The translations under genes and the position numbers were made by a program. A DNA stretch of 64,000 nucleotides from Straminergon stramineum (taxonomy: Eukaryota; Streptophyta; Bryopsida; Hypnales; Calliergonaceae), in NCBI GenBank assembly GCA_963920665.1, contig OY987265.1:24619001-24683000 (forward strand). The letters are read 5' to 3'. Below are positions 393 through 52,000 of the stretch, one piece after another. Numbering within the stretch: the first letter of the stretch is position 1; every line of letters starts with the position of its first letter. The notes under the pieces are model-generated. The model was not told where the DNA came from, searched no databases, and saw only the letters and a program-made list of their open reading frames with translations.

Positions 393-836
393 CTATTAAC
401 CAAACAACTTTCATAAATGATGTACTTCAGAACTGCATATCGGACGTCGGAATTTAGAAAACAGGAGATTCAACAACTTTCGAAATATGACGGACAGGAA
501 GGAGTTTGCCAAATTCATTTGCGACTCTCGGCCTGCTTACGGTTTCAGCAAGGTGCACTTCGCTACTACTTTCCAAAAATATTCAAGAATGGGGTGCGTT
601 CACTCCAGTCCTTCTGCCACGACAACCTAAGGGTGCTCATTTCTCAAAATTAAACAGACGACGAGATTCCATCTCAATACTTGGCAAAAGAGACTCACCA
701 TGTCGAGCAGAAAAAAACCCCTCAAACGATAGACAGAATTGCTTGACCATCCTGTCATTTTTCGCACATCTTCAAGGCTTGATGGACACAAAGAAAAATC
801 ATACATAACGAGATAGTTTGATGAATGAATGCTCAC

Positions 837-2868
837 CAAAGAAGATTTGCACCTCTTGAGTACTTCACAGATACGGGAGAACGATGGTCTGTCCTCAGGA
901 CGCCGCTCCCAACACTGCTCCACGAGTTCGATCAACTCAACTGGAAATCGATTCTCCAGCCCTAAATTTTTCCATTTTTCAGATTCACTTGGTTTCAGTG
1001 TGCCTTCAATGACCTCTCCAGCTTTACATTTGCGTTTAAAATAGGTCGGATACCCTGTCAGCACCTCGTGAGCTACACCACCGAAACTATATACGTCAAT
1101 TTTCCCAGGGTGAGCTAACCTAACATTCTCACGATCCTGCCGCCACTTCAGAAGTTCAGGAGCCGCTGATGTGGTGGTACCATCTCCACCAGGTTTGAAG
1201 GGTCGCCCGTTGTCAAAGAACTCGGCATCACCAAAATCCGTGACTTTGGCAAGGAAATGTCGACCATTTCCTAGAATCTCGAAAGTGCTTAAGACAATAT
1301 TATCCGCCTTCAGATCCCCATGTACCCACCCCTTGAGATGCAAGTGCTCCACTGCACTTGAAATTTGCAGCAACACATCAAGGCTATCCTCGCGTGAAAA
1401 GGGTGGATTAACATCCACTCTACTTTTCTCGACCGCATACCGTGTCAGACTTTCATCAAGCATTTCCATGAGTAGACTCCATTTTCCATCCTTCTCGAAA
1501 TAGCCGAAACCCCGGGTTATGTGTGGGTGCAACACCCTCTCAGCAATGACTCGTTCTTTGAATGTCATTTCAGAGACAGACTTGTTGAACGCCTTCATGG
1601 CGTAAGTGCCTTTCCGCCATGAAACCTTGTAAACAGTCGCTGCACTACCTTTCCCAAGCTGGTCATTGGCTCCATATGCTACATCAATGGCTTCTATAGT
1701 CCGGAGGGATGCCCTTTGGGCCGTAGGTCGAACAACACTGCTTTGCAATTGTGCTGCAAGGTCACACATTCCACCGTTTTCTCTCCATTCATCTACCTTG
1801 AAGAACGAACCCTTCTGACGAGCTTGGTCGATGACGGTGATGGGAATGAACCCCCTTCTATTACTACAACAAGGGGTCCTCCACAGCAATGACGATTGCA
1901 CGCTTGTCCAGTTCGATTGACGTTGCACCTTCTGCAGCCTTTCCCAGTAAGCTCTACGAGGCAGAATATTCCATCGAATTTCGATTCGAGAGGTGAGCGT
2001 GGACTGATGTCTTTCCAGCTGTTCCCAAATTGATTGACACATTGGAGTATCCCTGAAGAGTTTAGCCATTAGCCTCATTTCAGAGCTGACAGAATGAAAG
2101 AAAACGTCGGCTTCTTGAAGGGAGTCAGCAGGTTCATCCACCTTCAAGGTGATCGTCGTTATCAACCACGGATCATCACATAAACCATCGTCAATTTCAG
2201 ACTTGGAAGCAACAAGGCAGAGGTACATCATGAGTCCCAGTCGCCTTCCAGGAAAATTAGGAAACTTCTTCTCAAGCTCGGGACACATTCTCATGGAAGA
2301 TGCCTGCGCCAGCTCGAAATAGTCCATCACGACCGAGATGAAGAGACTGTTGCAGAAAAGTAGTGGAGCCTGGGAAAGTCTCTGCAACCAGTGAATGCCC
2401 CAGTTAGTACATGAATCCACTTTGATCAAAATCTATAATTCCTCTCAACACCAGAAATTCAAGAAACTGATTACTGGAGCTCAACACCATGTCCACAGGG
2501 CCTCGAACGTTAATCGTCAATGCTACAGCTCTTCACAATCTCACGGCAGCGTGGAGATCACAAATAGAATGTTCAATGTCAGTACATAAAACGCATTAGA
2601 TATCAATAATTCATAAATAGCAATGATAGTGAAACCTTTGGGCTACCTCTGAGCTATGAGCTTTGCCTACAAGAGGACGTTCCAGGAGGTTCAACGCCTG
2701 CGACAGAATCCTCGCAGCCTGGTGAACACAATGTTGGTCAAGCAGCTCACCAACTGCTCGGCTTGCCCTCGGCAAACAAACTCCTGTAAACAGGTTCCAA
2801 GATCGCTCACCAATCGGTACGTGAACCAGCAGCAACCCCAGCTGTGAATTTTGTCCACCATCATCACA
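837..2868 (-). CDS. Non-RD protein kinase gene, two exons visible (5' end not resolved)
   Basis: Two minus-strand exons, 2868-2647 and 2381-837, join in phase 0 (donor GAG|GTAGCC, acceptor ttgcag|AGA). The large exon encodes about 210 residues of unassigned helical sequence, then a complete kinase domain: glycine loop LGKGSAATVYK, beta-3 lysine in YAMK (1593-1595), catalytic loop HGDLKADN (near 1310-1325), TDFGDAEF, SAAPELL, DVYSFGGVAHEVLTGYP and the final Arg in ERRPEDRPSF. The Arg of HRD is Gly, so this is a non-RD kinase, a class often found among immune kinases. All other catalytic residues are present, so activity is likely. The domain ends near LKRCKSSL at a good donor (TTG|GTGAGC, 836), so a short 3' exon probably follows. 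Exons upstream of 2868 are unclear. An ATG at 3382-3384 with a donor after 3300 reads well but is out of phase with the next exon. Other ORFs over these exons are shadows. Confidence 0.72.
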
Positions 2869-4995: not shown

Positions 4996-6710
4996 TGTCA
5001 CGACCCTCATCACAAGGCGTGCCCGTGCCACCTTGGTGAGCAAGGGGGACATTGGGGGTGACTCCCCAAGCCTTGCATGAGGTGAGGGGGACTGGGAGTC
5101 TCGAGCAATCAGAGCATGTTAGTGCTTTGATCCGGACGAATTTGGGGGCGTGTGATACATGCTTGAAAAGGTCTTGAGAAGACGCTTGTAGCCGTCCAAA
5201 GAACACGTGATTTGGACTTGCGAGTCAAAAGTTATGGGCGTTCAAAGTTGGGGGTGTCCCGGTCGTGCCGGGAGTGTCCTGGTCTTGCTGGGAGTGTCCC
5301 GAATCTTTGGAGGGTGATAACTTTGCGAGTACTTATCCAAATGGAGCAAGTGAGTATTCCATTGGCATCTACGTGTCGTGTAAATGTTGAAAATGGGGTC
5401 GCATGTGCGATTTGGATCCCGGACCGCAAAGTTATGCCGGGTGGAAGTTTGGGAGTCCCAAATTAGCACGAATCAGGAGAAACGGGGTGGTTTTCCAAAA
5501 CCAAAGGGTGTTTGGGAGTCCCCCTTGACATACAAAGGGGGGGTCTGCCGAATCCCACAGAAAGTACTATAGGAGGGGTTGGTCTCCCTCCTCACTCCCT
5601 CTTGGAGCCTTGGTGAGTCCCGGTGACTCAAGGTTGGTGGTGTGGGGTCACCACCACTCCAAGGCATCATGGGACACTTGGATGTGTCCTATGGCACCGG
5701 TTGGGTGGAATCCCACTCTTTGCTAGGCTATGTGAGGTGTCCCGAATGGTGAGTCCCGATTAGTGACGAAGTGGAAAGTAGAAAATACACAATGAGCCTA
5801 GTATGGAGTTGGGGTGACACTCAAGGGCGATTAGGACCATGGTGAGTAGTGCCACCATGGGTCCTTGCACAATAAGATGGAAGTCCCGCCCCATGTTACC
5901 AAGTAACATGCCCCGGTGTTATGATGTGTGTGTGTGTGTGCTAGTAGTCTCGGTGACTGGGACTTAGTACAAATAGTTGGAATTGGGGACTAACATTGGA
6001 TGTGCGTGGCATGTGCAGTGTTAGAGGAGCATGACCCTTGGTGCTACTAAAGTATCAAGTGCTTGATAAGCATTGAAAGGGAACTTAAGGTAGTAAGGGG
6101 CACTAAGGGGCACGACACACATAGGGGGGGTTGATGAATACCATAGAAAGTACTATTGGAGGGGTTGGTCTCACTCCTCACTTCCTTATGGAGCCTTGGT
6201 GAGTCCTAGTGACTTAAGGTTGATGATGCAAGTTCACCACCGGCTTCAAGGCACCATAGGACACTTGTGTAGATGTCCCAAAGCACTGGTTGGATGGAGT
6301 TCTGCTCCTTGTTAGGCCATTTGCGATGTGTCCCAAGTTGTGAGTCCCGAGTAGTTTGGTATGAAATTAACAAATGTACAATGGGCCTAGTATGGAGTGG
6401 GGTGACAACCAAGGGCGTCTAGAACTATTGTGAGTAGTGTCACCATGAATCCTAGCATAGTAAGATGGAAGTTCCGCCCCAAGTCACCAAGTGATGTGCT
6501 AGGTGTCACATGTGGAGTGCATGCTAGTAGTTCCAAGGATTGGGATTTAGCAATGTAAGTTAGAAATGAAAACTAATGTTGTGGGTGCATAGCATGTGCA
6601 GTGTTAGTTTGGACCTAAGCAATAGTAGAATTGAAGCGTGGTAAATTCTATAAGCTGTAAACGGCTTCTAAAGGCTACTTGGAGTTGTAAGGTGTTACTA
6701 GGCCACGACA
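4996..6710. repeat. LTR-like block with internal tandem duplication of about 590 bp
   Basis: The block starts TGTCACGACC and ends GGCCACGACA, so it has TG...CA ends that form a short inverted repeat, as in an LTR. No clear 5-bp target duplication is seen (atggc against agtgt). Inside, two diverged copies lie head to tail: the motif AAAGTACTAT is at 5561 and again at 6147 (offset 586), and each copy ends in CACGACA (near 6112 and 6710). 5245-5300 also has short repeats of the type GGGAGTGTCC, and a (TG)n run lies near 5925-5940. No coding capacity is credible. A solo LTR with an internal duplication is my reading; a plain tandem repeat is the alternative. Confidence 0.45.
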
Positions 6711-22182: not shown

Positions 22183-24000
22183 ATGGAAGAATTGGAGTCT
22201 ACAGATAGCCAACCTTCTTCTTCATTGACAAGGCTCTATGAAGGTAATTCTCCTATCATTTTAAGCCATCTTTCTACTTTCCACTACTATTTCTACTTTC
22301 ACAGAGATATAGTTGTATGTACTCACATTCTTAAGGAATATATGATGATCATCTAATGTCAAAGAGTAGAGATGATTGTTAGTAAATAAATGCTACTACC
22401 TACCGATATGTTCAAATGTTGATTTTATCTTCTTGGTAGTTGAAGAATATTGACAACATGTAATGAATTTGTACAGAAGATGTTACAATTCCTGAGAGGG
22501 ACTTGGATACACACTCAAAACTTGTGGTAGCTTCTTACGAACGTGTGCAAATGATGCATTCACTATCATTCAACAATGAACAATGTCAATATCTTGTTGA
22601 TAAACTCAAAGAAGTCATTGAAAGTTCAAGTGCGTTTTTAAAGACATCACATGGGGTATACATTGGATCATATGCACCTTTGGAATTGGAAAAACATCTT
22701 TTAAGCTTCAAGCTACTCCTTGTATTGGCTACTGAAATTGAAAGATTCATGGAAGGGTGTAGCAAAGATGCATGGGTATCCATCGCAATGACATTGACAA
22801 ATGTGTCTGAGTTTGTCTCATCCATTGGATTTCATTTGGAGTTGTGCCGGGTTGCCTTGTCTAAGGAATTTGGAGCATTTGGAGGTTTAAACTTAGACCA
22901 AGTAGAAGACATCAAAAAGGATGTCCATGAAATTGTTGAAACAAAGACTTCTATAGACAAAGAAGACCTCTTGAAGAAAATTTCATTGGCTTTGCCTTCA
23001 TTGCATGGAGATGAGAAGGATTCGGCAACTTATTTGCTTCAAAGACTTTTGAGGGTGGCCCCAATTCCAAGCATACCTTCATTAGAGTCGAAATGGGATT
23101 TATCTCAATATTTGACTTTTTTGGGAAGTATCTCTAAGAAGGTCAAAGAAAGGGTGTCCATTGGAAGAGGAGCTTCGACTACTATATTCAAAGCCATGTG
23201 GTTGGGATTAGAAGTTGCAGTAAAGGTTTGGCATGGGAAAATTAACCCAGAGTTCCAAAATGAAGTGGATATTCTTATGAGATTGTGCCATCCCAATATT
23301 ACCACTATGTTTTGTTACGCACAAGATGGACAAAAGTGTTCCATTTTCATGGAGTTGATGGATAAAGACCTCTTTACATTGATGCAACAAAGACAAGAAA
23401 ATCACGGCTCTCCTCCTTTCAATATCTGGGAAGCAATTGACCTGATGCACCAAATAGCAGAAGGGGGAAAGTACCTTCATGAGCAAGGAATTGTGCATAG
23501 GGATTTAAAATCGTCCAACATTCTTGTCAATAGTGTGAAGACACCAGGTTTAGATTTGGAATATATACAAGCCAAGGTGGCGGACTTTAATATATCCAAA
23601 ATCAAGAAAAACAACACTACAAATGTTGAATACACAATGAATATTGAAAGCAACAGATGGATGGCACCAGAGTTGATACAACTTCAAAGCTTAGGCATTC
23701 CAATGAATGTTGCAGTGAACAATCAATCAATACCAAAATATCCTCACAAATGTGATATTTACAGCTTTGCAATGGTGTGCTATGAAATATTGACTGGAGA
23801 ATTGCCTTTTGGGGATGTTGACGATCCAAAGAAGATGAAAGCAATGATATTGGAGGGTGATCGTCCAAAGCTTCCCACTCAATGTCCTTCTCAATTGATA
23901 GTTTTGATTGAAAAATGTTGGAATCCACAACCAAAAAGTCGTCCAACTTTCGATGACATTTGTTAAGAGTTGAAGTACATGAAGTTCATATTAATGACCG
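22183..24000 (+). CDS. N-terminal part: helical (MLKL/DUF1221-like) domain plus kinase 1
   Basis: The ATG at 22183 opens a 61-base exon (MEELESTDSQPSSSLTRLYE) that splices in frame to 22477. Residues about 40-230 are predicted all-helical; NNEQCQYLVDKLKEV and the Cys/Lys-Asp-Ala-Trp stretch (GCSKDAWVSIAMTL) recall the N-terminal bundle of plant MLKL-type kinases (DUF1221), a resemblance seen by eye only. The kinase domain has IGRGASTTIFKA, VAVK (lysine 23223-23225), HRDLKSSN (His 23496), RWMAPELI, CDIYSFAMVCYEILTGELPFG and KSRPTFDDIC. It is an RD kinase with an intact catalytic loop, but the Gly of DFG is Asn (ADFNIS, Asn codon 23589-23591), which may change metal binding or activity. The TAA at 23964 ends it 12 codons before the exon donor at 24001. 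On its own it would make a kinase of about 513 residues lacking only the last helix. Confidence 0.7.
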
Positions 24001-27000
24001 GTTAGTATCTTGACTTTCAAAACTTTGAATTTCTAAAGATTTTACTTTTGTTTTGTTCTTTAGTAAAAAAGTGTAGTACATGGATATATGATCATAGTTT
24101 CTAACTATTGTTGATATGAATGCATGCCAAATGTTATTAAAAATTTAATATTTCTTATTCAAATGTAGTGTATTGTAGTGTACAACATTAATATTTGTTG
24201 TTCAATGACAAATAAAACTAAAATATGAAGCATGAAACACATCACTTTTAAGTATAAACGGTTTAGTTTTAAAATACATTTGAGAGCTTTGTAGTATGCA
24301 ACCATTGTAAAATTTTGAAATTAACTTCAATACTTTGGAAATTGCAGGTACATCTTCTACATCCAAGGTATGCTTGTAACTTATTGGCAAAAAGAAATCT
24401 TGAAATTTTTGTATATCTCAGAACTCTTGTGATTTTCTTTCATACTTTGATTAAATAAATTTTGTACTCCAAATATACTATAGATTTGGATATAAATTTA
24501 TACTAAAAAAATCATAGATGTTGCATTGGGCTTAGTACCTCTACAGGGAAAATAATTATCATATATTATCTACACAAAATTGTAGATTCAAGACTCTTTT
24601 GAAAAAGGGCAAGTAGTAAAGGTTTTGATTTTACATTTAAGGTTAAAAATACTAGATTGTAGGATATTCTCAAGATTGATTATCATTTTTCAAATATTGT
24701 TACCACTTTGAGGATGTCTAGGTAACTCAAGGGAATGATGGCAAGTATGTACATGCATTGGAGGACTTCAGCAAGTTTACTCAACTTTAGCCTAATTGTG
24801 CTTGGACATTACAGATTCAAGAGAATGTTAAGCGATTGATGGATAAGCATGTAGATGCATTGGAGGACTTAAACAAGGCTAATGAACTTCAACCTAATAA
24901 TGCTTTGACGTTAAAGAGGCGTGGAGAAGTTAAGAGAATCATGGGCAATTATGCAGATGCATTAGAAGACTTGAACAAGGCTGATGAACTTCAACCTAAT
25001 GATGCTTGGACATTAAGAAATCGTGGGGACATTAAGAGAATTATGGGCAAGTATGCAGATGCATTGGAGGACTTAAATAGGGCTGATGAACTTCAACCTA
25101 ATGATGCTTGGACATTGTTGACTCGTGGAGAAGTTAAGAGAATCATGGGCAAGTTTGCAAACGCATTAAAGGACTTGAACAAGGCTGATGAACTTCAACC
25201 TAATGATGCTTGGACATTAAAGAGGCGTGGAGAAGTTAAACGAATGATGGACAAGTATGCAGATGCATTAGAAGACTTGAACAAGGCTGATGAACTTCAA
25301 CCTAATGATGCTTGGACATTAAGAAATCGTGGGGAAGTTAAACAAATGATGGACAAGTATGCAGAGGCATTAGAGGACTTGAACAAGGCTGATGAACTTC
25401 AACCTAATGATGTTTGGACATTGAGAAATCGTGGGGAGGTTAAGCAAATGATGGACAAGTATGCAGAGGCATTGGAAGACTTGAACAAAGTTGATGAACT
25501 TGAGCCTAATAATGCTTGGACATTGAGAAATCGTGGATATATAAAACGAATGATGCACAAGTATGTGGATGCATTGGAGGACTTGAACAAGGCTGATGAA
25601 CTTGAGCCTAATGATGCTTGGACGTTGAGAAATCGTGGGGAAGTTAAACAAATGATGGAAAAATATGCGGATGCATTGGAGGACTTGAACAAGGCTGATG
25701 AACTTGAGCCTAATGATACTTGGACATTGTTAACTCGTGGGGAAGTTAAGAAAATCATGGGCAAGTATGTAGAGGCATTGGAAGACTTGAACAAGGTAGA
25801 TGAACTTGAGCCTAATGATGCTTGGACGTTGAGAAATCGTGGAGAAGTTGAACAAATGATGGAAAAGTATGCAGATGCATTGGAGGACTTAAACAAGGCT
25901 GATGAACTTGAGCCTAATAATCCTTGGACATTGAGAAATCGTGCAGAAGTTAAGAAAATCATGGGCAAGTATGTAGATGCATTGGAGGACTTAAACAAGG
26001 CTAATGAACTTGAGCCCAATAATACTTGGACATTGCAAACTCGTGGAGAAGTTCAGAGAATGATGGGCAAGTATACAGACGCATTAGAGGACTTGAACAA
26101 GGTTGATGAACTTGTGCCTAATGATGCTTGGACAAAAGAAGTGGAGAACTTGTCGCATATGACTACTCTTAATTTGAAAGATTATTCAAGATTGGTGGGC
26201 TTGCCAATAGAAGTAGAAAACTTATCTTCCTTGAATACTTTAGATTTGAGTGGGTATTTAAGGTTGATGGCCTTGCCAAAAGAAGTGAGAAAATTATCTT
26301 CCTTGACTACTCTTAATTTAAAAGATTCTTCAAGGTTGGTGGCTTTGCCAAAGGAAGTAGGGAACTTGTCTTCCTTGACCACTTTAGATTTGAATGGGTG
26401 TTCAAGCTTGGTGGCCTTGCCAAAGGAAGTAGGGAACTTGTCTTCCTTGACTACTTTAGATTTGAATGGGTGTTCAAGCTTGGTGGCGTTGCCAAAGGAA
26501 GTAGGAAACTTGTCTTCCTTGACCATTTTAGATTTGAATGGGTGTTCAAGCTTGGTGGCCTTGCCAAAAGAAGTGGAGAATTGGTCTTCCTTGATCACTT
26601 TAGATTTGAGCGGGTGTTCAAGTTTGAAAGCCTTGCCAAAGGAAGTAGGAAACTTGTCTTCCTTGACCATTCTCAATTTAAAAGATTGTTCAAGTTTGGA
26701 GGCCTTACCAAAAGAAGTGAAGAAGTTATCTTCTTTGGACACTCTCAATTTGTCATGGTGTATAAGTTTGGAGGCCTTCCCAAAAGAAGTGGGGAACTTG
26801 TCTTCTTTAACTATTTTAGATTTAAGTGGGTGTTTAAGATTGGCCACCTTGCCAAAGGAAGTAGGGAACTTGTCTTTCTTGATCACTCTCAATTTGAGAC
26901 AATGTACAAACTTAGTGACCTTGCCAAAGGAAGTGGGGAATTTGTTGTCCTTGACCATGTTACATTTGAGTGGGTGTTCAAGATTGGCAGCCTTGCCAAA

Positions 27001-30000
27001 GGAAGTAGGGAACTTGTCTTCCTTGACTATATTACATTTAAGTGGGTGTTCAAGCTTGGTGGCTTTGCCAACGGAAGTAGAGAACTTATCTTCATTGACC
27101 ACTATAGATTTGAGTAGGTGTTCAAACTTGGTAGTCTTGGCAAAGGAAGTGTGGAACTTGTCATCTTTGACCACTTTCAATTCAAAAGATTGCTTAAGCT
27201 TGGTGGCATTACCAAAGGAAGTGGGAAATCTATCTCTTTTGACCACTTTAGACTTAAGTGGTTGTTCAAAGTTGGCAACCTTGCCAAAAGAAGTGGGAAA
27301 CTTGTCATCATTGACTACTCTTAATTCAAAAGATTGTTCAAGCTTGGTGGCCTTGCCGAAAGAAGTGGGGAACTTATTTCCCTTGACCACTTTAGATTTA
27401 AGTGGTTGTTCAAGGTTGACTACTTTACTAAAAGAAGTAGGAAACTTATTTTCTTTGACCACTCTTAATCTAAAAGATTGTTCAAGTTTGGTGGTTTTGC
27501 CAAAGGAAGTGGGGAACTTATCTTCATTGACCACTCTCGATTTGAGACGGTGTTCAAGTTTGGTGGCCTTGCCAAAGGAAGTGGGGAACTTGTCTCTCTT
27601 GACTACTTTAGATTTGAGTGGGTGTTTAAGTCTGGTGGATTTGCCAAAGGAAGTGGGGAATTTATCTTCCTTGACTATATTACATTTGAGTGGATGTTCA
27701 AGTCTGGTGGATTTGCCAAAGGAAGTGGGGAACTTATCTTCCTTGACTATATTACATTTAAGTGGGTGTTCAAGTCTGGTGGCCTTGCCAGAAGAAGTAG
27801 GGAACTTGTCTCTCTTAACCACTTTAGATTTAAGTGGGTGTTCAAGTTTGGTGGATTTGCCAAAGGAAGTGAGGAACTTATCTTCCTTGACTATATTACA
27901 TTTAAGTGGGTGTTCAAGTTTGGTGGCCTTGCCAAAGGAAGTGGGGAACTTGTCTCTCTTGACCATTTTAGATTTGAGTGGATGTTCAAGTTTGGTGGAT
28001 TTGCCAAAGGAAGTGGGGAACTTATCTTCTTTGACTATATTACATTTGAGTGGGTGTTCAAGTTTGGAGGCCTTGCCAAAGGAAGTGGGGAACTTGTCTC
28101 TCTTGACCCCTCTCAATTTAGAAAATTGTTCAAGGTTGGTGATCTTGCCAAAAGAAGTGGGGAACTTGTCTTCCTTGACCATGTTACATTTGAGTGGATG
28201 TTCAAGATTGGAGGCCTTGCCAAAAGAAGTGGGGAACTTATCATCCTTGACCAAGTTACATTTGAGTGGGTGTTCAAGGTTGGGAACCTTGCCTAAAGAA
28301 GTGGAGAACTTATCATCCTTGACTACTCTCAATATGTCATGGTGTTCTAGCTTAGTAGCTTTGCCAAATGAAGTAGGGAACTTGTCTCTTTTAGCCACTT
28401 TAGATTTGAGTAGGTGTTCAAGCTTGGTGGCATTGCCAAAAGAAGTGGAAAACTTGTCTCTCTTGACCACTTTAGATTTGAGTGGGTGTTCAAGGTTGGT
28501 GGATTTGCCAAAGGAAGTAGAAAACTTGTCCTCCTTAACTATATTACATTTGAGTGGGTGTTCAAGTTTGGCGACTTTGCCAAAGGAAGTGGGAAACTTG
28601 TCTTCCTTGACTATATTACATTTGAGTGGGTGTTCAAGGTTGGTGGCCTTGCCAAAGGAAGTTGAAAACTTGTCTTCCTTGACCACTTTAGATTTGAGTG
28701 GGTGTTCAAGTTTGGTGGCTTTGCCAAAGGAAGTGGGAAACTTGTCATCTTTGACCACTCTCAATTCAAAAGATTGTTCAAGATTGGAGGCATTACCAAA
28801 AGAAATAGGGAACTTGTCTTCCTTGACCACTCTCAATTTAGAAAATTGTTCAAGGTTGGCAATCTTGCCAAAAGAAGTGGGGAACTTGTCTTCCTTGACC
28901 ATGTTACATTTGAGTGGATGTTCAAAGTTGGAGGCCTTGCCAAAAGAAGTGGGGAACTTATCATCCTTGACCATATTACATTTGAGTGGGTGTTCAAGGT
29001 TGGCAACCTTGCCTAAAGAAGTGGGGAACTTGTCTTCCTTGACCATGTTACATTTGAGTGGATGTTCAAAGTTGGAGGCCTTGCCAAAAGAAGTGGGGAA
29101 CTTATCATCCTTGACCATATTACATTTGAGTGGGTGTTCAAGGTTGGCAACCTTGCCTAAAGAAGTGGGGGACTTATCATCCTTGACCATTCTCAATATG
29201 TCATGGTGTTCCAGCTTGGTAGCTTTGCCAAAGGAAGTGGGGAACCTATCTTCGTTGACTACTTTAAATTTGAGTTGGTGTTCAAACTTGGTGGCCTTGC
29301 CAAAGGAACTTGGGAACTTGTTTTCCTTGACCAATCTCAATTTGAGTGGATGTTTAAGGTTGTTGGCCTCATCAAAAGAAGTGGGGAAATCTTCTTTCTT
29401 GATGATGCTCAATTTGAAAGAGTATTCAAGCAAGGTAATAATTTAATAGTGTAATTGAACATCTAAATTTGAATGTAGTTTTTACGTGGGTTTCTTTTCT
29501 TTGGCCTAAGTTGATTAAGAATTTCATAATTTTTCTTGTGTATATTTTGTTCGGATGTAACTAAAGGTTACGTAAGTCTTTTGAATTGCATGAATTGGGA
29601 ATGAGGGATCCATATTAGTATATAAATTACACATCTATGAGTGAAGCAAAGGGATATTATTGACTAGCCATGCAACATTCATTTACCATTTTTTAGATAA
29701 GTTATATAATAATATCACTTTTGTCATTTCTAGGCTCAAGTGAAGACTACACAAGTGGACAAGCATGTATTTAAAAAGCAACAACAAGAAGCTGTTATGA
29801 CTCAATCCAAAGCCAAGAATGACTTATCTAAAAACTTCAACAACACTATCCAAGTAAAATTTCACTTTCTTCTCTCATTGTATTGTTTGTTAGCTATTTG
29901 GTTTGGAATTCTTGAACTAGATGTTTATTAATTAAACTTCTTTGCAAGATTTATGCCTTGTAAAGGCATTCATTTATTTGTGTTTTAAAGTTTTTGTAAC

Positions 30001-31324
30001 ATCTAATTACAATTGTCTTTAGAACTAGGCATTGTAGTTAACTCATGTACATTTGCCACTCATAAAGGAAAGTTAAAATCACTATGAATGATGGGGCATT
30101 GTATTGTTTTGAATTTTCAAGGGTTTATACTAAGAATGTGATCTTTATTTGTATCAGGAACCTGTTTTGAAGCTTTTGTCACTTTTGAAAATCAAAGGAC
30201 TTGATGCTCTTAGTTCCTTGTCACTATGGTTTCAAATTCGTATCGGTATGTCTAGTCAACAAGTACTATTTTCGAACAAGGGAAAAGTAGAATCCAAAGA
30301 TTTGCTAACCAAGCATTTTTTAGGCCAAGGTTGTTCAGGAATCTTCTATGAGACAACATGGTCTCACAAAAGTACAATCAGGCTCACAAGGAAAGACTTT
30401 CCTGGAGTAACAAGTGATACTTTTGTAAAGGAAGCTATTCAATTGTTTGAACTTAGAGACCATCCAAACCTAGTGAAGACCTTTTGTTGGACTATTGACA
30501 ATAGAAGTTGTTCCCTTGTGATGGAGTATATGAAAGATGATCTCTCTAGTTTCATACGAAAGAAAAAGGAGGCTATAATGAAGAAGGTTGACCAAGCAGT
30601 GATTGGAGTCAATCCATCTCCTTTCCAATTGCTTGAAGTTTTGGAAATTTTATCGCAAATTGCTATTGGTGTGGAATACATACATGCCAAAGGTATCTAC
30701 CATGGCGATCTCAAACCGAACAATGTTTTTCTTGATTGGAAAGAAGGTCAGATGTTGGTAAAGGTGGCTGACTTCGGTCTTCTCAAAACTAAGAGAAATA
30801 CAACATTACTTTCACAACAGGCTCTTTGCTTTCAAATGATAGAATGGAATGCACCAGAGTTGTTTGAAATGTTTTTTAGTTCCATGAGTGAAGACTCGGA
30901 TTTTTTGTGGACAACATCACTTACAAGAATGAATCCAAGTACTTCAAGTGCTCCATGCTCTGAGAACAAGCAAGAACTCATGCTAGAAAAGGCAGACAGC
31001 TACAGCTTTGGTTTAACAAGCGCATATATTCTTGGAGGTGAACAAATATGGCCTGCAAAATTGAGCCCCGAAGAGCTATGGAAGCAAATATCAAGTCATG
31101 GTTTAAGACCAAAACTTCCTTCAGAATGTCCCCCAAAGCTAGCATCTCTGATATATGCATGTTGGGATGTTAATCCCTCGTGTAGGCCTACATTCTTTGT
31201 CATTCAAAATAAGATTCAAGAGATTATCAAAGAACAACGAGAGCAAATGGAGGAATCAGGTATTGTTCTTGAACATGGAATGCATTCATTGTATAGAGTT
31301 TTGGACTACAATTTGAATTCCTAA
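22183..31324 (+). CDS. Kinase-TPR-LRR-kinase fusion gene, six exons, two in-frame stops
   Basis: Exons: 22183-22243, 22477-24000, 24348-24367, 24722-29434, 29734-29853 and 30158-31324, all with GT..AG borders and matching phases (1, 1, 0, 0, 0). Ignoring two stops, the coding length is 7,605 bases (2,534 residues). Order: N-terminal helical domain, kinase 1, a 20-base mini-exon (TSSTSK), about 14 TPRs, about 45 LRRs, a charged Gln/Lys-rich linker exon, kinase 2. The stops are TAA at 23964-23966, just inside the end of kinase 1, and TAG at 24788-24790 in the first TPR, where all other repeats have Gln (LQPN). Both are one C-to-T step from a Gln codon. Either the allele is a recent pseudogene, or the locus now makes two proteins. 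Kinase plus LRR suggests intracellular signalling or immune recognition (inference). No signal peptide or membrane span is seen. Confidence 0.75.
24722..26130 (+). repeat. TPR array, about 14 units of 34 residues (102 bp)
   Basis: Thirteen complete TPRs follow the pattern W-T-L-x-x-R-G-E-V-K-x-x-M-x-K-Y-A-D-A-L-E-D-L-N-K-A-D-E-L-x-P-N-D-A, one per 102 bases, with few differences between units. A fourteenth, more diverged unit at the start (24722-24825) carries the TAG at 24788-24790. The splice acceptor (gtctag|GTA) is at 24720-24721. TPRs of this kind bind partner proteins. Unit homogeneity points to recent expansion or conversion. The last unit runs straight into the LRRs (WTKEVENLSHMTTL) with no linker. 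Confidence 0.85.
26131..29434 (+). repeat. LRR array, about 45 units of 24 residues (72 bp)
   Basis: Units follow L-P-K-E-V-G-N-L-S-S-L-T-T-L-D-L-S-G-C-S-S-L-V-A, the plant cytoplasmic type known from TIR- and CC-NLR LRRs and from intracellular Ras-group LRRs. There is no transmembrane segment or signal peptide, so it is probably cytoplasmic. Units fall into DNA subtypes (ending in ttagatttgagtgggtgt, ctcaatttaaaagattgt or atattacatttgagtggg) that alternate in higher-order blocks. A two-unit block is duplicated exactly at 28871-29025 and 29015-29169. Forty-five units would give a very long solenoid. Long open frames on the other strand and in other frames here are consequences of the 72-base periodicity, not genes. 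Confidence 0.88.
29734..31324 (+). CDS. C-terminal linker exon and degenerate kinase 2
   Basis: Exon 29734-29853 (ttctag|GCT..CAA|gtaaaa) encodes a 40-residue Lys/Gln-rich linker. Exon 30158-31324 (tatcag|GAA, stop TAA 31322-31324) encodes a kinase-like domain: FLGQGCSGIFYE, catalytic loop HGDLKPNN (near 30703), VADFGLLK, WNAPELFE, DSYSFGLTSAYILGG and PSCRPTF. The beta-3 strand reads STIRLTRKDF (30369 on), so the usual VAIK lysine is replaced or displaced, and the HRD Arg is Gly. An inserted Ser/Thr-rich stretch (about 40 residues) follows APE. I judge it a pseudokinase or weak kinase. Both exons are in phase 0 with the LRR exon, which supports a single transcript. A separate gene starting inside exon 29734 is less likely, as no ATG with a leader is apparent. 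Confidence 0.7.
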
Positions 31325-33341: not shown

Positions 33342-34640
33342 TTGATGTCTCTGCTTGATCGGTGCCAGGACCCCGATGAGTGCGCGGGCAACAACTGGAT
33401 CCCAAGACTTCGAATGATGTCACATTCAAATCCGTGGGTGATAGTAGCCGTGGACTTGGTCACGACATACTCCGGGTTCACCTTCGCGCACATCACCGAC
33501 CTCGACAAAATCTACTGCTTCTACGATTCCCCATAATCCGCTGGGAGCAGCCGAATTGCAAGACCTTTACCGCCAGCTACTACAAACAAATGAACGGCGT
33601 TTGAGAGTTTCAGAACGAGGATTTCCCCGCCCGTGCGGAGTACGAACGCGATGTGTCCGCCCTGGAAAGGATACACGCCCTTCCCTTCCAACCAAGCGTT
33701 GGCTCTTGCTTCATGAAATTCAAGCTCCACCTCGCAGGCAACCACATGGTACCCTCGTCTGCTCCGCCCCTTCCACTAGGGCTCACCGTTAACGTGCTCA
33801 TCACCAATTATCTCCGCGCTACGGGGGAGCTCATTCTGAAAACGCTAAGGACGAGCTACGAACCGGAGTTGTCGACGAAGGATATTCAGAGGTGCGTCAT
33901 ATCACAGTGCCGTCCATTTGGGACAATGCAGCGAAGGAGACCATGAAGTCGTGCATTACGGCGGCGTGGTTGGTGAATGGCGTGGAAGGGAGATCGCATC
34001 CGCTCATTGTTGTGCTCGAACCCTAAGCGACATCCTTTCATTTTCACAAGGTGAGATATATTGGGAATCACGCGATCATGCACCACGCTTTAATTTCATT
34101 TCCTTGCTTTGTTGTAATACCTGAATTACTAACACAAGATTCCCAATGGTATAATCATCATGAGGGAGAAGATGACTAGTGCCAGGTTTCACCATAACTG
34201 ATATCAATGCCAAGAACGTCGTCAATATGATTACATTGGCGGTATTCCACTACTTTAGCAATTTTCAGGACGTCCGCCCGACCTGAAGAGTAAATTTATT
34301 TTCAGTCTTGGATTTTAGAGCTTTGTGCAGATGTATGTCGCCAAATCAAAACTTTGACACCCAACTGCTTGAAGCTCTAAAAACTGGGACTCGTATAGAT
34401 TTACGTTTCCTGGTGTCTGAATTTCTGCCAATGTTACGGAATTGACGTTATAGCTTGTGTACCTAGTAATGACTCTAATTCTTCCGTATAATTTATATAA
34501 ATGATGATTGTAGATTTATATGTAATTCAAGAATGAACGTTCTTGATGTAGGTAATGAGTGCGCAAGTGCTGGAGGTTGGGGATAAGCTCCTGGTCGCCG
34601 ACATTGGTGGTCGAAATGCGGACATCGTTTATTTCTTTAT
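33342..34640 (+). pseudogene. HSPA12-like Hsp70-family ATPase, broken
   Basis: GC-rich relic of a gene for an Hsp70-superfamily ATPase of the HSPA12 type. Frame 1 (from 33342) has WVIVAVDLVTTYSGFTFAH, the phosphate-1 motif with the first Gly of DLGTTYSG changed to Val. A frameshift near 33530 leads to EQPNCKTFTASYYKQ, a TGA at 33602-33604, and then SALERIHALPFQP and ATGELILKTLRTSYEPEL. A second shift (apparently a 5-base insertion near 33893) leads to HITVPSIWDNAAKETMKS and HPLIVVLEP, with TAA at 34027 where the family has Glu. The exon ends at a good donor (CACAAG|GTGAGA, 34050). A second exon from 34552 (gatgtag|GTA) has VGDKLLVADIGGRNADIV, the phosphate-2 motif with two changes, and is then cut off by an (AAATAAAG)n SINE tail. 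The family is known mainly from animals and fungi. The gene is certainly dead as written. Confidence 0.75.
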
Positions 34641-35098
34641 TTCTTTATTTCTTTATTTCTTTATTTCTTTATTTCTTTATTTCTTTATTTCTTTATTTCT
34701 TTATTTCTTTATTTCTTTATTTCTTTATTTCTTTATTTCTTTATTTCTTTATTTCTTTATTTCTTTATTTCTTTATTTCTTTATTTCTTTATTTCTTTAT
34801 TTCTTTATTTCTTTATTTCTTTATTTCTTTATTTCTTTATTTCTTTATTTCTTTATTTCTTTATTTCTTTATTTCTTTATTTCTTTATTTCTTTATTTCT
34901 TTATTTCTTTATTTCTTTATTTCTTTATTTCTTTATTTCTTTATTTCTTTATTTCTTTATTTCTTTATTTCTTTATTTCTTTATTTCTTTATTTCTTTAT
35001 TTCTTTATTTCTTTATTTCTTTATTTCTTTATTTCTTTATTTCTTTATTTCTTTATTTCTTTATTTCTTTATTTCTTTATTTCTTTATTTCTTTATTT
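34628..35098. repeat. Perfect (TTTATTTC)n microsatellite, 471 bp
   Basis: An 8-base unit TTTATTTC is repeated about 59 times without a single interruption. On the minus strand it reads (AAATAAAG)n and follows directly on the SINE-like body at 35099-35200, so it is best explained as an over-grown SINE 3' tail. The open frames through it (FISLFLYF repeats) are not genes. The exact length in the genome may differ, because such arrays collapse or expand in assembly. Confidence 0.95.
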
Positions 35099-35200
35099 GT
35101 GTCCCCATTGGGGTTTGAACCCTAATCTCCACCATTATAATGGGGAGTCTTTGCATTCTATGAACCTACTTCCCTTCAATGTCTATTGCCACCTTTTTAT
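35099..35200 (-). mobile_element. tRNA-derived SINE-like element (minus strand)
   Basis: On the minus strand the sequence has an A-box-like stretch (TAGGTTCATAGAATGC), an anticodon-arm-like segment (GCAAAGACTCCCC), a perfect Pol III B box GGTTCAAACCC (near 35112-35122) and GGGGACAC just before the (AAATAAAG)n tail. This order is that of tRNA-derived plant SINEs. The body is short (about 100 bp). No target duplication was found around body plus tail. It lies inside the second exon of the HSPA12-like pseudogene. Confidence 0.55.
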
Positions 35201-37159
35201 TCCATTTATATCCTTCATATTCCTTGTTTAATGATGAGAGCATGTGCTGTAAATATTTTTCCAAGGCCATTTTTGACTCCTTTCTCATGTTTTTTAACCT
35301 TTTGCTTGAAAAAATTGTCACATGGGTGACAATTTATTGAAAATTTCAGAAATTGGATGGATTAGAAGTCGAAAAAATGGAATAGGTTTGGACTTTGGGC
35401 TTGGACTTCAGGCTTGGACTTTGGACTTTGGCCTTTGGAGGCTTCACACTATGGCCGGCCGAAGGCTCCAATTCCTAGTTTTTTTGGCCTATTTATTGCT
35501 CATTTCCTTGGACTCTCACCAAAGTTTGGCCACTCAATCCCACGGCCTCTCGACTTGGACGGCCATAGTGTGAAGAGGCCCTAAACTTCGGGGGTTTAGT
35601 GATCTGAACTGTTCCAATTCCAATTCCAGACGATTGTGTGAACTGGTCCGGTTCTTTGTTGGGGGCTTTCTCCAGGTGGTCCAATTTTGTGAAGTTACGC
35701 CAATGTAACGAATATGACCCTCAGCATACAGAGAGATTTCATTTGTAGAGGCCATTTGTTTATCACAAGTAGTTCTGTGGCTGTAAAATTGCCAGGGGAG
35801 ATGTACATAATGATTCGTCTGGATCATAGTTAAAGGAGCTTTTATTTCCTGTTCTGCATGCCATCTTCAGTGCTATGAATTTGGGCTCTCAATGGTGAAT
35901 CCTTCAGACTGCGGTGGTATTCCTTCGTTCTGCTCTAGTCTTGTCATGCGATCATCCTGACAGTTTTGGTATCCTCTGCCATAGCATATTCCAATTTCGT
36001 AATTGCACTCCAAATCAAATCGTGGCACCAAAGTCTGCAAGTAGAGTAAGTGACCCATTCTCGACCATCACCCCATTTTCACAGTTTAGGCTAGTGTATT
36101 TCCAATCAGTTGTGGTTTACATTTCTGCTCACAACTGTCATGTATTAGTTGGAGCAACATAAATGTTCAAGAAGTGTACATTGAAAGCATAGAATGATCA
36201 CAATATGTACATTGAAAGCCACAATTATCACTCTCATTGATTTTGTAACAAGCCTATGATCAAAAATAGATTGACCTATATAACAAGAATAGGTTTCATA
36301 GAATCTTCATGAAAAAAATTCACAGTCATTTCATTTTTTATTAGAAAAATGAAAAAAAATTCAAATCCTTCTAAAATCTATTTCCCTGCATGCTGAAATT
36401 ATTTCCTTCACCAAACTCATCCTACAGCTATGTTCAATTCCTTAAGTGGTTGGAAATGGGTCATTTACTATATGTAAATATTAACTAGTCTATGTTCATA
36501 CATCTTAATGTCCGATCCTCTTCAGAGTGTTAGTCTTTCAGACTTCAAAGCATCTCCTACACAGTGATAAAAGAGCCTTGTCAATTGATTTTCAAGATGG
36601 AAGAAGCAACCAAGTGAAATTGAATCCCCAACAACACAGCAATGACAGCATTGCACTTGGAGATGTAGAGGAGCGGGGCCCCTAAAATTAGCCTCGACCC
36701 CAGTAGAATTTTCATTTGTAGAGGGGACCTTCATGGCCCCTTGTTGTCATTGGATTCCGTGTTTTGACAAGTCAAAGGCCATTTTGGTGATGACAACGCC
36801 AACTTGGAAGCCATAGTCATATTTGTGGATTGGTGTGAGTCACCCTTCTCAATTGTCTTCTTGAAGTCTACAAGTTTTTTCCCATGGTGCATATGAAAAC
36901 AAAACCCCCCTATATTGTGCTTTATTTTTATTTTTTTTACACCACTCCACCCTAATTTGGGCCTCTAATTGCTTGTAAGAATTCCAAAATTCCTAGATTT
37001 TATGACGGGTGACAAATAAGTAGCTCATGTGTTTTCCCTTAGGATACAATGAGGGATGAGTATTTCCTTGTGAATGAAGACGTTAGTGTTATGAATTAGA
37101 AAATTTTGTGAATCAAGAGGTAAATGATGTACAAGAATTAGCTACATGAGCTTGTAGGA
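35201..37159. other. Intergenic DNA with a small fold-back MITE at about 35433-35582
   Basis: GGAGGCTTCACACTATGGCC (35433 on) and GGCCATAGTGTGAAGAGGCC (35561 on) form inverted ends of a MITE of about 150 bp. A related end (AGTGTGAAGCCCTA) occurs near 55640. The flanking 35380-35430 has short CTTGGACTTTGG repeats. Several short ORFs on both strands (35.5-36.7 kb) show no domain and are not called. Confidence 0.4.
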
Positions 37160-49082: not shown

Positions 49083-52000
49083 CAGTGGGGTACCAATCAA
49101 AATGTCGTTTTCGAATTCGCAGTGAGAAAAATTTCAATATTGCCAACTTTGAAAGCCTCCCAAGAGCTCAAATATTGGTATTTTACCACGAAATTTTTAC
49201 CAAAGCATTATCTTTGAGTTAATTATAAGTATGCCAAATTTCAAGGCCAAAAAAATCACCGAAAAAAAGGTTATTCAAAATCTACCAACATTGGTAGCTG
49301 TGGAAATTTTTTCACTATTGCCAACTTTGACAGCCTCCCAAAGATTGAGTTAGTTTTTTTTTGCCATGAAATTCTTGGAACAAAAACATATTTATGTTAA
49401 TAACATATGATAAAAATTTCAAGGCCAAAAGATTAATACAAAAAAAAGATATAAACAATCTACCAACATGTGTCGTTTTGAGAAACAATTGTGAAAACCG
49501 TTTCACTACTTCAACTTTGACACCCTCCCAAGGGCTGAAAAATTGCTTATTTACTATGAAATTTTTTCCACAAAGTGATTTCTATGTTAATAACATTTGT
49601 GAAAAGTTTCAAAGCCAAAAAAGTCATACAAAAAAAAAATTCAAAATCTACCAACATGTGTAGCTGTGAAAAACCATTTCACTACTTCCAACTTTGACAC
49701 CCTCCTAAGGGCTGCAATTTTACTTATTTACCATGAATTTTTTTTCCACAAGATCCCCTCTATGCTAATAACATGTGTGCCAAATTTGAAGGTCAAAAGA
49801 TTTACACAAAAAAAGAAATCCACAATCTACCAACATGTGTAGTTGTGGGAAACAATGGGGGAAACCATTTCATTGCTACCAACTTTGACACCCTCCCAAC
49901 GGTTGAGAAATTGTTTATTTACCATGAAATTTTTGGCACAACATGCTCTTTATGATAACAACATTCATGCCAAATTTCCAGGTCAAAAAATTTATACAAA
50001 AAAAAATATTTACAATCTACCAACGTGTATGTCCTCCATTTGCTTCAATCACTGCTTGTAACCTAGAGGGCATAGAATGACATAGTTGAAGGAGCTTTGT
50101 ACCATTGATTAACCTCCACTCTCTTTCAATAACTACCTTCAAGTCATCTAAATTTTTTGGACATATTGGGCCATGTTGCACAGCATCTTTCAAAATCTTC
50201 CAAAGGTTCTCAATTGGATTAAGATCGAGAGAATTTGCAAGCCAATCGAGCTTCTCCAAAAGGTGTGTTTGTCTCCATTCTTCACATACTTCGCTACAAT
50301 GGACAGGTGCACCATCTTCCATGAGCAATCCCTGTGGCACTCTACTCATAAAATGAAGCAACTCGACATTGTAGACCACTTCAACAAAATCCTTAGCAGA
50401 ACGTCTATCTTTGGGCATAAAAACAAGTTGTGACTTTTGCCCTCCAGCAAATGCACCCCAAATCATCAAAGAAGTTCTGCCACTCTTAAAAGTTGGAACT
50501 ATACAACTTGATGAATAGCGCTCATATGCATTTCTCCAAACATGAACTTGTCAAGAATTTTTTCCAACTTCAAAGGTAGACTCATCTGTCCTAACAACTC
50601 TCTTCCATTCTTTTACAGTCCACCCACAATACTTTTGAGCAAATGCCAATCATTGAGACATGTGATGATGTGTCAAAAAAGGTTTTTTAATAGCAATTCG
50701 ACTGAAAATGCCACTCTCATGTAAGGCCCTTCGAATAGTCAATCTAGACACTTGAATAGAACATATATTAGTGATCTTAGAGAGTGTTGAGCGACGATGA
50801 GTTTTTGAGACACGTATAATAGCACAAACATCTCTATCACTATGCTTTTTAGCATGACTTCTACCACAAGGTTTGCACTTATAAGTTCCATCTTCTCGAA
50901 ATTTCTTCACTACCCTCTGAACTATTCTAACATGGACTCCAACAATAGCTGCAATATCAACTCCTGTCTTCCTTGCCTCATTGAAACCTACTATGTGAGC
51001 ACAAGTTTCATTTGAAATAGCCATCACTCAGTGACCATGATCTAGCCTTCACTTAATCACCATGATCCAACCTCACTCACTGAGCACATATATAACCTCA
51101 CTTAGTCATTAGAAAAAAATCTCACATACCCTCAATCACTCACCATCATCCTGCCTCACAACCTTCACTCATTCACTAGACCTCACCAGTCACCACATAT
51201 AAGTTGTAACCTCGCTCACTCTTAAAGAAAATCTCACATACCTCCATATATCCTCAGACACTCATCCCATGCCTCATCCACTCAGTTATTACATAGCCTA
51301 GACTTACTCAGTTAACTCATCTTTCAAGCACTCAATCACTAATGTTCACAAAGTTTCAATCTTGTGCTTAGAAAATAATCACCCATCACTTGCTTCTCTG
51401 ATCATCCCACATCCCACCTCCTATAATGCTCTATTGTAAATGCAAGCATTCTTATTGAGAGGAAAAAGTTTCTTCATGCATGTATGGTCTCCAATTTTTA
51501 AACAAGTGCAGTCTTTGAGATGTGACAAGTGCACACAACTAAATTTAGCTATCCTTGATATTTTTTAGAAGCATTTATGATTGGCGATTGCATCATGTGG
51601 AGAATTTCAATCTAGAAGCATGATTGTCTAACATACTTCAACAATTTCAATGTCTTTAATAAAAGGTATCTCACAACTACACACATTGGTAGATTGTAAA
51701 TATTTTTTTTTGTATAAATTTTTTGACCTGGAAATTTGGCATGAATGTTGTTATCATAAAGAGCATGTTGTGCCAAAAATTTCATGGTAAATAAACAATT
51801 TCTCAACCGTTGGGAGGGTGTCAAAGTTGGTAGCAATGAAATGGTTTCCCCCATTGTTTCCCACAACTACACATGTTGGTAGATTGTGGATTTCTTTTTT
51901 TGTGTAAATCTTTTGACCTTCAAATTTGGCACACATGTTATTAGCATAGAGGGGATCTTGTGGAAAAAAAATTCATGGTAAATAAGTAAAATTGCAGCCC

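What the first reader, a model, noticed from the sequence alone, without database searches (positions are those of the whole stretch)
22183..31324. A single gene joining kinase 1, TPRs, LRRs and kinase 2
Six exons agree in phase at every junction and encode, in order, a helical domain, a kinase with DFN, about 14 TPRs, about 45 LRRs, a linker and a degenerate kinase. Fused kinase-pseudokinase proteins are known plant immune receptors (tandem kinase proteins such as Rpg1 and WTK1), and LRRs are the usual recognition module, but I know of no described family with a TPR-LRR solenoid between two kinases. It could be a nucleotide-binding-domain-free intracellular receptor in which the solenoid senses and the two kinases signal.
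Basis: partly seen in the sequence, partly recalled or inferred. Interest (0 to 1): 0.9.

Follow-up and report, generated by a model that had tools for sequence, protein, structure and literature searches.

The report
Moss MLKL-type kinase–TPR–LRR–kinase locus
A moss carries a set of genes that join an MLKL-like (cell-death type) domain and kinase to long repeat arrays with no NLR core; at this one locus such a gene runs on in frame into leucine-rich repeats and a second kinase, but a premature stop codon leaves open whether the whole chain is made as one protein.

Summary
The domains are real and in the stated order. One (TAG 24788) probably lies in an intron: an acceptor at 24814/24815 is shared by 14 of 18 paralogues. 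The other (TAA 23964, end of kinase 1) stays; 17 of 18 paralogues have a sense codon there.

The "helical domain" looks like an MLKL-type HeLo domain: the family profile matches AtMLKL2 along its length, and the folded domain's three best solved matches are AtMLKL2, the MLKL executioner domain and AtMLKL3. All 18 paralogues examined have TPRs after kinase 1; 0 of 18 show LRRs or kinase 2 in the 7-8 kb downstream. The TPR–LRR junction was found only here among the candidates scored. Ceratodon has an annotated HeLo–kinase–TPR–kinase protein.

So the full order is not a family in this genome. It is one chimera built from a real, expanded, NB-ARC-free MLKL–TPR family. Both kinase exons show past purifying selection. 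Kinase 2 is not degenerate: its catalytic motifs are present, non-RD. Whether one protein is made needs RNA.

The parts
22183..22243 (+). exon 1, start codon at 22183
   Evidence: GT donor, phase 1 into exon 2
22477..24000 (+). exon 2: HeLo domain, brace and kinase 1
   Evidence: AG/GT borders; 84-80% identical copies elsewhere in the genome
22488..23054 (+). MLKL-type HeLo (helical) domain with brace helices
   Evidence: AF2 model pLDDT 92; VIA ranks 1-3 are AtMLKL2, MLKL executioner domain, AtMLKL3; family profile to 6lba over its whole length
23151..23960 (+). kinase 1 domain: VAVK, HRDLKS, DFN
   Evidence: Pfam PF07714 4.9e-45; motifs
23964..23966 (+). premature TAA at the end of kinase 1, 37 bases before the conserved donor
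   Evidence: sense codon in 17 of 18 paralogues
24348..24367 (+). 20-nt microexon 3
   Evidence: 20-nt microexon with AG/GT found by pattern in 15 of 18 paralogues
24788..24790 (+). TAG in the degenerate first TPR-like stretch; probably intronic
   Evidence: stop at the same place in 7 of 18 paralogues, read from the alignment
24815..29434 (+). exon 4 (revised start): TPR array then LRR array in one open frame
   Evidence: acceptor AG shared by 14 of 18 paralogues; open frame
24854..26134 (+). 13 TPRs of 34 aa
   Evidence: Pfam TPR_1 4.7e-53; spacing
26135..29434 (+). about 45 NLR-type LRRs of 24 aa, joined to the TPRs mid-repeat and in frame at 26134/26135
   Evidence: Pfam LRR_14 1e-134; spacing; junction
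29734..29853 (+). exon 5, 40-aa linker
   Evidence: AG/GT borders, phase 0; no match in L031 or L032 better than chance
30158..31324 (+). exon 6: kinase 2 (domain about 30311-31204), non-RD, and stop codon
   Evidence: Pfam PF07714 4.3e-36; 60% identical paralogue at C5:6749706; motifs

Best explanation
The locus is a one-off chimera in a moss. Its 5' half belongs to an expanded family of MLKL-type genes (HeLo domain, kinase with DFN, microexon, TPR array, no NB-ARC). In this copy the TPR array is joined, mid-repeat and in frame, to an NLR-type LRR array, and that is spliced through a linker exon to a second, non-RD kinase from another moss kinase lineage. Proposed mechanism, inferred from MLKL biology: the repeat array binds a target or a guarded host protein and holds the HeLo–kinase module shut; binding, or phosphorylation by kinase 1 or 2, frees the HeLo bundle to oligomerise and act at membranes or microtubules, giving defence or cell death without an NB-ARC switch. 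In this assembly a TAA at the end of kinase 1 cuts the chain, so this copy most likely yields a HeLo–kinase protein alone and/or a separate TPR–LRR–kinase 2 product, or is an early null allele. Shown by sequence: domains, family, phase, junction, stop, past selection on both kinase exons. Inferred: sensing, execution, expression.
Confidence: 0.6

Rival explanations
1. One intact gene makes one protein, HeLo–kinase–TPR–LRR–kinase, a one-piece NB-ARC-free sensor-executioner; the TAA is an assembly error, a private allele, or is spliced out through a weak donor just before it.
For: All other junctions are in phase and open. A GT at 23962 is in phase with the microexon and would remove the stop. 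Both kinase exons show purifying selection. Ceratodon P0246 is an annotated HeLo–kinase–TPR–kinase protein.
Against: TAA in the assembled sequence. The early donor is a poor match to the recalled consensus, and the normal donor 39 bases on is conserved in the paralogues. No locus with the full order was found elsewhere in the genome. No RNA.
Confidence: 0.22
2. Two neighbouring genes: a HeLo–kinase gene at 22183-24000 and a separate TPR–LRR–kinase 2 gene starting within 24000-24860.
For: TAA at 23964 and, in most paralogues, an in-frame stop just past the kinase if intron 2 is kept (ORFs ending MTG or similar). TPR-LRR-kinase 2 is open from 24815 on.
Against: The microexon and TPR acceptor are shared with paralogues (15 of 18; 14 of 18), which argues that kinase 1 and TPRs are normally one gene. 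No separate promoter or start was shown.
Confidence: 0.25
3. A pseudogene: a young, dying copy of the MLKL–TPR family into which LRR and kinase 2 DNA was moved.
For: The TAA; decayed copies exist in the same family, e.g. L009 and L020; the arrangement is unique.
Against: Kinase 1 dN/dS equals that of intact copies, 0 of about 7 expected nonsense changes before the TAA, no frameshift in exon 2, kinase 2 dN/dS about 0.26, coding-frame constraint within the arrays.
Confidence: 0.3

Closest known systems
Plant MLKLs (AtMLKL2 6lba, AtMLKL3 6ka4; wheat-relative Pm13)
   Same: N-terminal HeLo-like helical bundle with brace, then a TKL-type kinase; profile match along the whole length, fold match. Pm13, like kinase 1 in most motifs, keeps kinase residues (PMC10951266, passages).
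   Different: No TPR or LRR array and no second kinase in the described plant MLKLs (passages seen). Kinase 1 has DFN in place of DFG.
Ceratodon purpureus M758_1G286800 (P0246, 1,537 aa, hypothetical protein)
   Same: HeLo–kinase aligns to the window's over 522 columns at 30%; then TPRs; then a C-terminal kinase.
   Different: No LRRs; its second kinase is not of the kinase 2 subfamily (27% to kinase 2). It is a gene model; expression not checked here.
Moss kinase-NBS-LRR (PNL, PpC24 type) and TIR-NBS-LRR-TPR genes
   Same: Same pool of modules: N-terminal kinase, LRRs, and C-terminal TPRs in three of four P. patens TIR-NLs (PMC3991678, first quarter of text and passages).
   Different: No NB-ARC was found in the scanned exons of the locus. 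That paper found no kinase next to LRRs without an NBS by its PpC24-based strategy.
Tandem kinase proteins (Rpg1, WTK1 and kin; recalled, and PMC10951266 passages)
   Same: Two kinase domains encoded in one frame series.
   Different: Kinases far apart with repeats between; kinase 2 is not a pseudokinase by motif; a stop separates the halves in this assembly.

Membership tests
plant MLKL | N-terminal HeLo / four-helix bundle with brace | tested here: met
   but Foldseek alone and Pfam MLKL_N gave no support for the window
plant MLKL | kinase or pseudokinase domain directly after the HeLo–brace | tested here: met
plant MLKL | ends after the kinase, without repeat arrays | tested here: not met
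   TPR array follows in 18 of 18 paralogues and the window; it is therefore filed as MLKL-like, not as a plain plant MLKL
plant MLKL | HeLo-driven cell death or disease resistance | not testable with these tools
   needs expression in plants
tandem kinase protein | two kinase domains in one polypeptide | tested here: inconclusive
   phase agrees but a TAA stands between them and there is no RNA
tandem kinase protein | one of the two is a pseudokinase (usual, not strict) | tested here: inconclusive
   kinase 1 has DFN, kinase 2 keeps its catalytic motifs; activity unknown
NLR | NB-ARC domain | tested here: not met
   none in the three coding blocks scanned
LRR receptor-like kinase | signal peptide and transmembrane helix | not tested
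   no predictor used

The most novel reading that the evidence does not exclude
Mosses evolved one-piece, NB-ARC-free sensor-executioners: an MLKL-type HeLo–kinase joined directly to TPR or LRR recognition arrays and, here, to a second kinase, all in one polypeptide. The window gene is the extreme case, HeLo–kinase–TPR–LRR–kinase, kept in at least some individuals or by splicing around the TAA.
Probability: 0.22. Interest if true: 0.85.

Novelty: new variant of a known kind. Interest (0 to 1): 0.6.

Why it matters
Plant MLKLs have been described as a family across seed plants that works beside NLRs (PMC9950082, passages). A moss genome with at least 18 copies in which an MLKL-type module is built onto TPR arrays suggests that sensing and execution were fused without the NB-ARC switch. 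That makes a testable question of whether the HeLo–kinase alone kills plant cells and whether the TPRs restrain it. The window locus shows how such receptors gain new modules, by in-frame joining of repeat arrays.

Tried and rejected
In 8 of the 14 the acceptor triplet is itself TAG, so the DNA before it cannot be coding in that frame.

Long open frames as proof of coding: set aside, since the antisense strand of the LRRs is also open for 1,086 aa; within-array pN/pS was used instead.

Shared TAA of the window and L009 as common ancestry: not supported, the tree does not join them (weak supports).

Whole-model fold searches returned only kinases, so the helical domain was folded alone. Foldseek for it found nothing at E <= 0.001.

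An LRR scrap before the kinase of P. patens P0018 was seen by eye, but Pfam found no LRR there, so it is not used. L030, L031, L032 and L037 showed no LRR or TPR before or after kinase 2-type exons in the DNA held. P0126 and P0003 lie on contigs of equal length; that contig could not be fetched.

Papers: searches listed no paper on MLKL–TPR or kinase–TPR–LRR–kinase genes in mosses; the library holds open-licence papers only.

Full report
What is in the window. The stated domains are present, in the stated order, on one strand.

The host and its copies. The window lies in a 326-Mb genome of 59 contigs. Both kinases' best named relatives are moss proteins (Ceratodon, Physcomitrium, Sphagnum, each a capped list of 120), so the host is taken to be a moss. 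Kinase 1 has many paralogues; I fetched the 18 that match most of the exon at 79-85% DNA identity, about 10 kb each. In 18 of 18 a TPR array follows; in 0 of 18 is there an LRR array or a separate kinase 2 match in the 7.0-8.0 kb held downstream of the kinase. The kinase 1 exon is uninterrupted in 14 of 18; L009, L011, L020 and L022 carry stops or frameshifts. In L015 and L022 the TPRs run to or near the end of the held DNA.

The stops. At the TAA codon 17 of 18 paralogues have a sense codon; L009, itself broken, has TAA. At the TAG, 7 of 18 paralogues also have a stop, and just downstream 14 of 18 share an AG at window 24813-24814, in phase with the microexon; 3 lack it and 1 has a gap (counted by eye). 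In 8 of those 14 the triplet is TAG, so the stretch before it is not coding. The 20-nt microexon is found by pattern in 15 of 18 paralogues, not in L014, L015 and L019. I therefore place exon 4 at 24815-29434. In that model one stop remains, the TAA. A GT two bases before it is in phase with the microexon and would splice it out, but it fits the recalled donor consensus poorly and is untested.

Selection. Kinase 1 of the window has mean dN/dS 0.36 against 16 paralogues (L009 and L020 left out as broken); the paralogues' own means are 0.30-0.37. On its branch of 0.107 substitutions per site (its position has support 0.275) about 159 substitutions would give 7.3 nonsense changes if free of constraint; none is seen in the 495 codons before the TAA. 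Window-only changes at conserved codons are 15 nonsynonymous and 11 synonymous, at the high end but matched by some paralogues. Kinase 2 has dN 0.30, dS 1.17 against L031 and 0.47, 1.46 against L032, dS near saturation. Within the LRR array pN/pS is 0.38 in frame against 0.52-1.30 in five other frames; within the TPR array 0.35 against 0.41-1.02 in three. So the coding parts were selected as protein until recently.

The LRRs and kinase 2. LRR arrays of this type are numerous in the genome; at L035 one lies behind winged-helix (2.9e-10) and NB-ARC (6.8e-5, just under the curated cut-off) sequence, so the array is of NLR type. Kinase 2's nearest paralogue is at C5:6749706, 60%. At that locus a short exon resembles the N-terminus of Ceratodon P0235/P0236 (E 2e-5 to 3e-5), and no such exon is found in the window (best E 0.2). 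Kinase 2 keeps its catalytic motifs with HGD for HRD, as do the relatives looked at (five of five for HGD).

Relatives elsewhere. Ceratodon P0246 (M758_1G286800) is HeLo–kinase–TPR–kinase. P0237 and P0238 put kinase 2-type domains after another kinase; P0243 and P0244 put LRRs after a kinase 2-type domain. In the own genome L040 has a kinase 1-like exon followed by an LRR exon, and L044 a kinase 2-type kinase, broken by one stop, followed by TPRs. Mosses thus shuffle the same modules; the window is the only place where I saw all four.

How it may work. By analogy with MLKL the HeLo bundle is the executioner and the kinase its latch; the arrays would be the sensor or clamp; kinase 2 could phosphorylate the latch. 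None of this was tested. Passages in PMC9950082 and PMC10951266 describe plant MLKLs acting in immunity, HeLo-driven cell death, and Pm13 as an MLKL resistance protein.

Verdict. The kinase–TPR half belongs to a real, expanded MLKL-like family; the full chain is a one-off chimera whose unity is unproven because of the TAA. Novelty: a new variant of a known kind.

Noticed in passing
L022 and beyond, G000:C7:14636039-14660000: The TPR array behind one kinase 1 paralogue lies in an open frame listed as 7,676 aa, one of the longest TPR frames I have seen.
   Followed up: no
L040 (G000:C7:6138200-6143000, minus strand): A kinase 1-like HeLo-kinase exon is followed about 170 bases on by an LRR exon with no NB-ARC between; a second such pair seems to lie at C7:5958704-5960056 by position only, its DNA was not obtained.
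   Followed up: partly
L044:1179-4894 (G000:C1:11246200-11253200): A kinase 2-type kinase with one in-frame stop is followed by a TPR frame of 659 aa; similar kinases lie nearby on C1.
   Followed up: partly
window 627-2432 (-) and L031:467-2047 (-): Another kinase gene with an N-terminal extension lies on the other strand near kinase 2 both here and at the C5 paralogue locus, 66-77% alike in pieces, as if a segment had been duplicated.
   Followed up: no
window 26182-29442 (-): The antisense strand of the LRR array is open for 1,086 aa; substitution patterns favour the sense frame, so it looks like a by-product of the repeat.
   Followed up: yes
window 34552-35231 (+): A simple repeat is open in all three forward frames (FISLFLYF repeats).
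   Followed up: no
window 50017-50550 (-): Piece of a transposase (Pfam DDE_3, 1.3e-7).
   Followed up: no
window 5031-6710 and L032: Repeated element about 72-76% alike at both places.
   Followed up: no
P0003 and P0126: A kinase 2 relative (61%) and a kinase 1 relative (48%) are each listed with a longest contig of 415,609 bases, so the two families may be linked in another moss.
   Followed up: no
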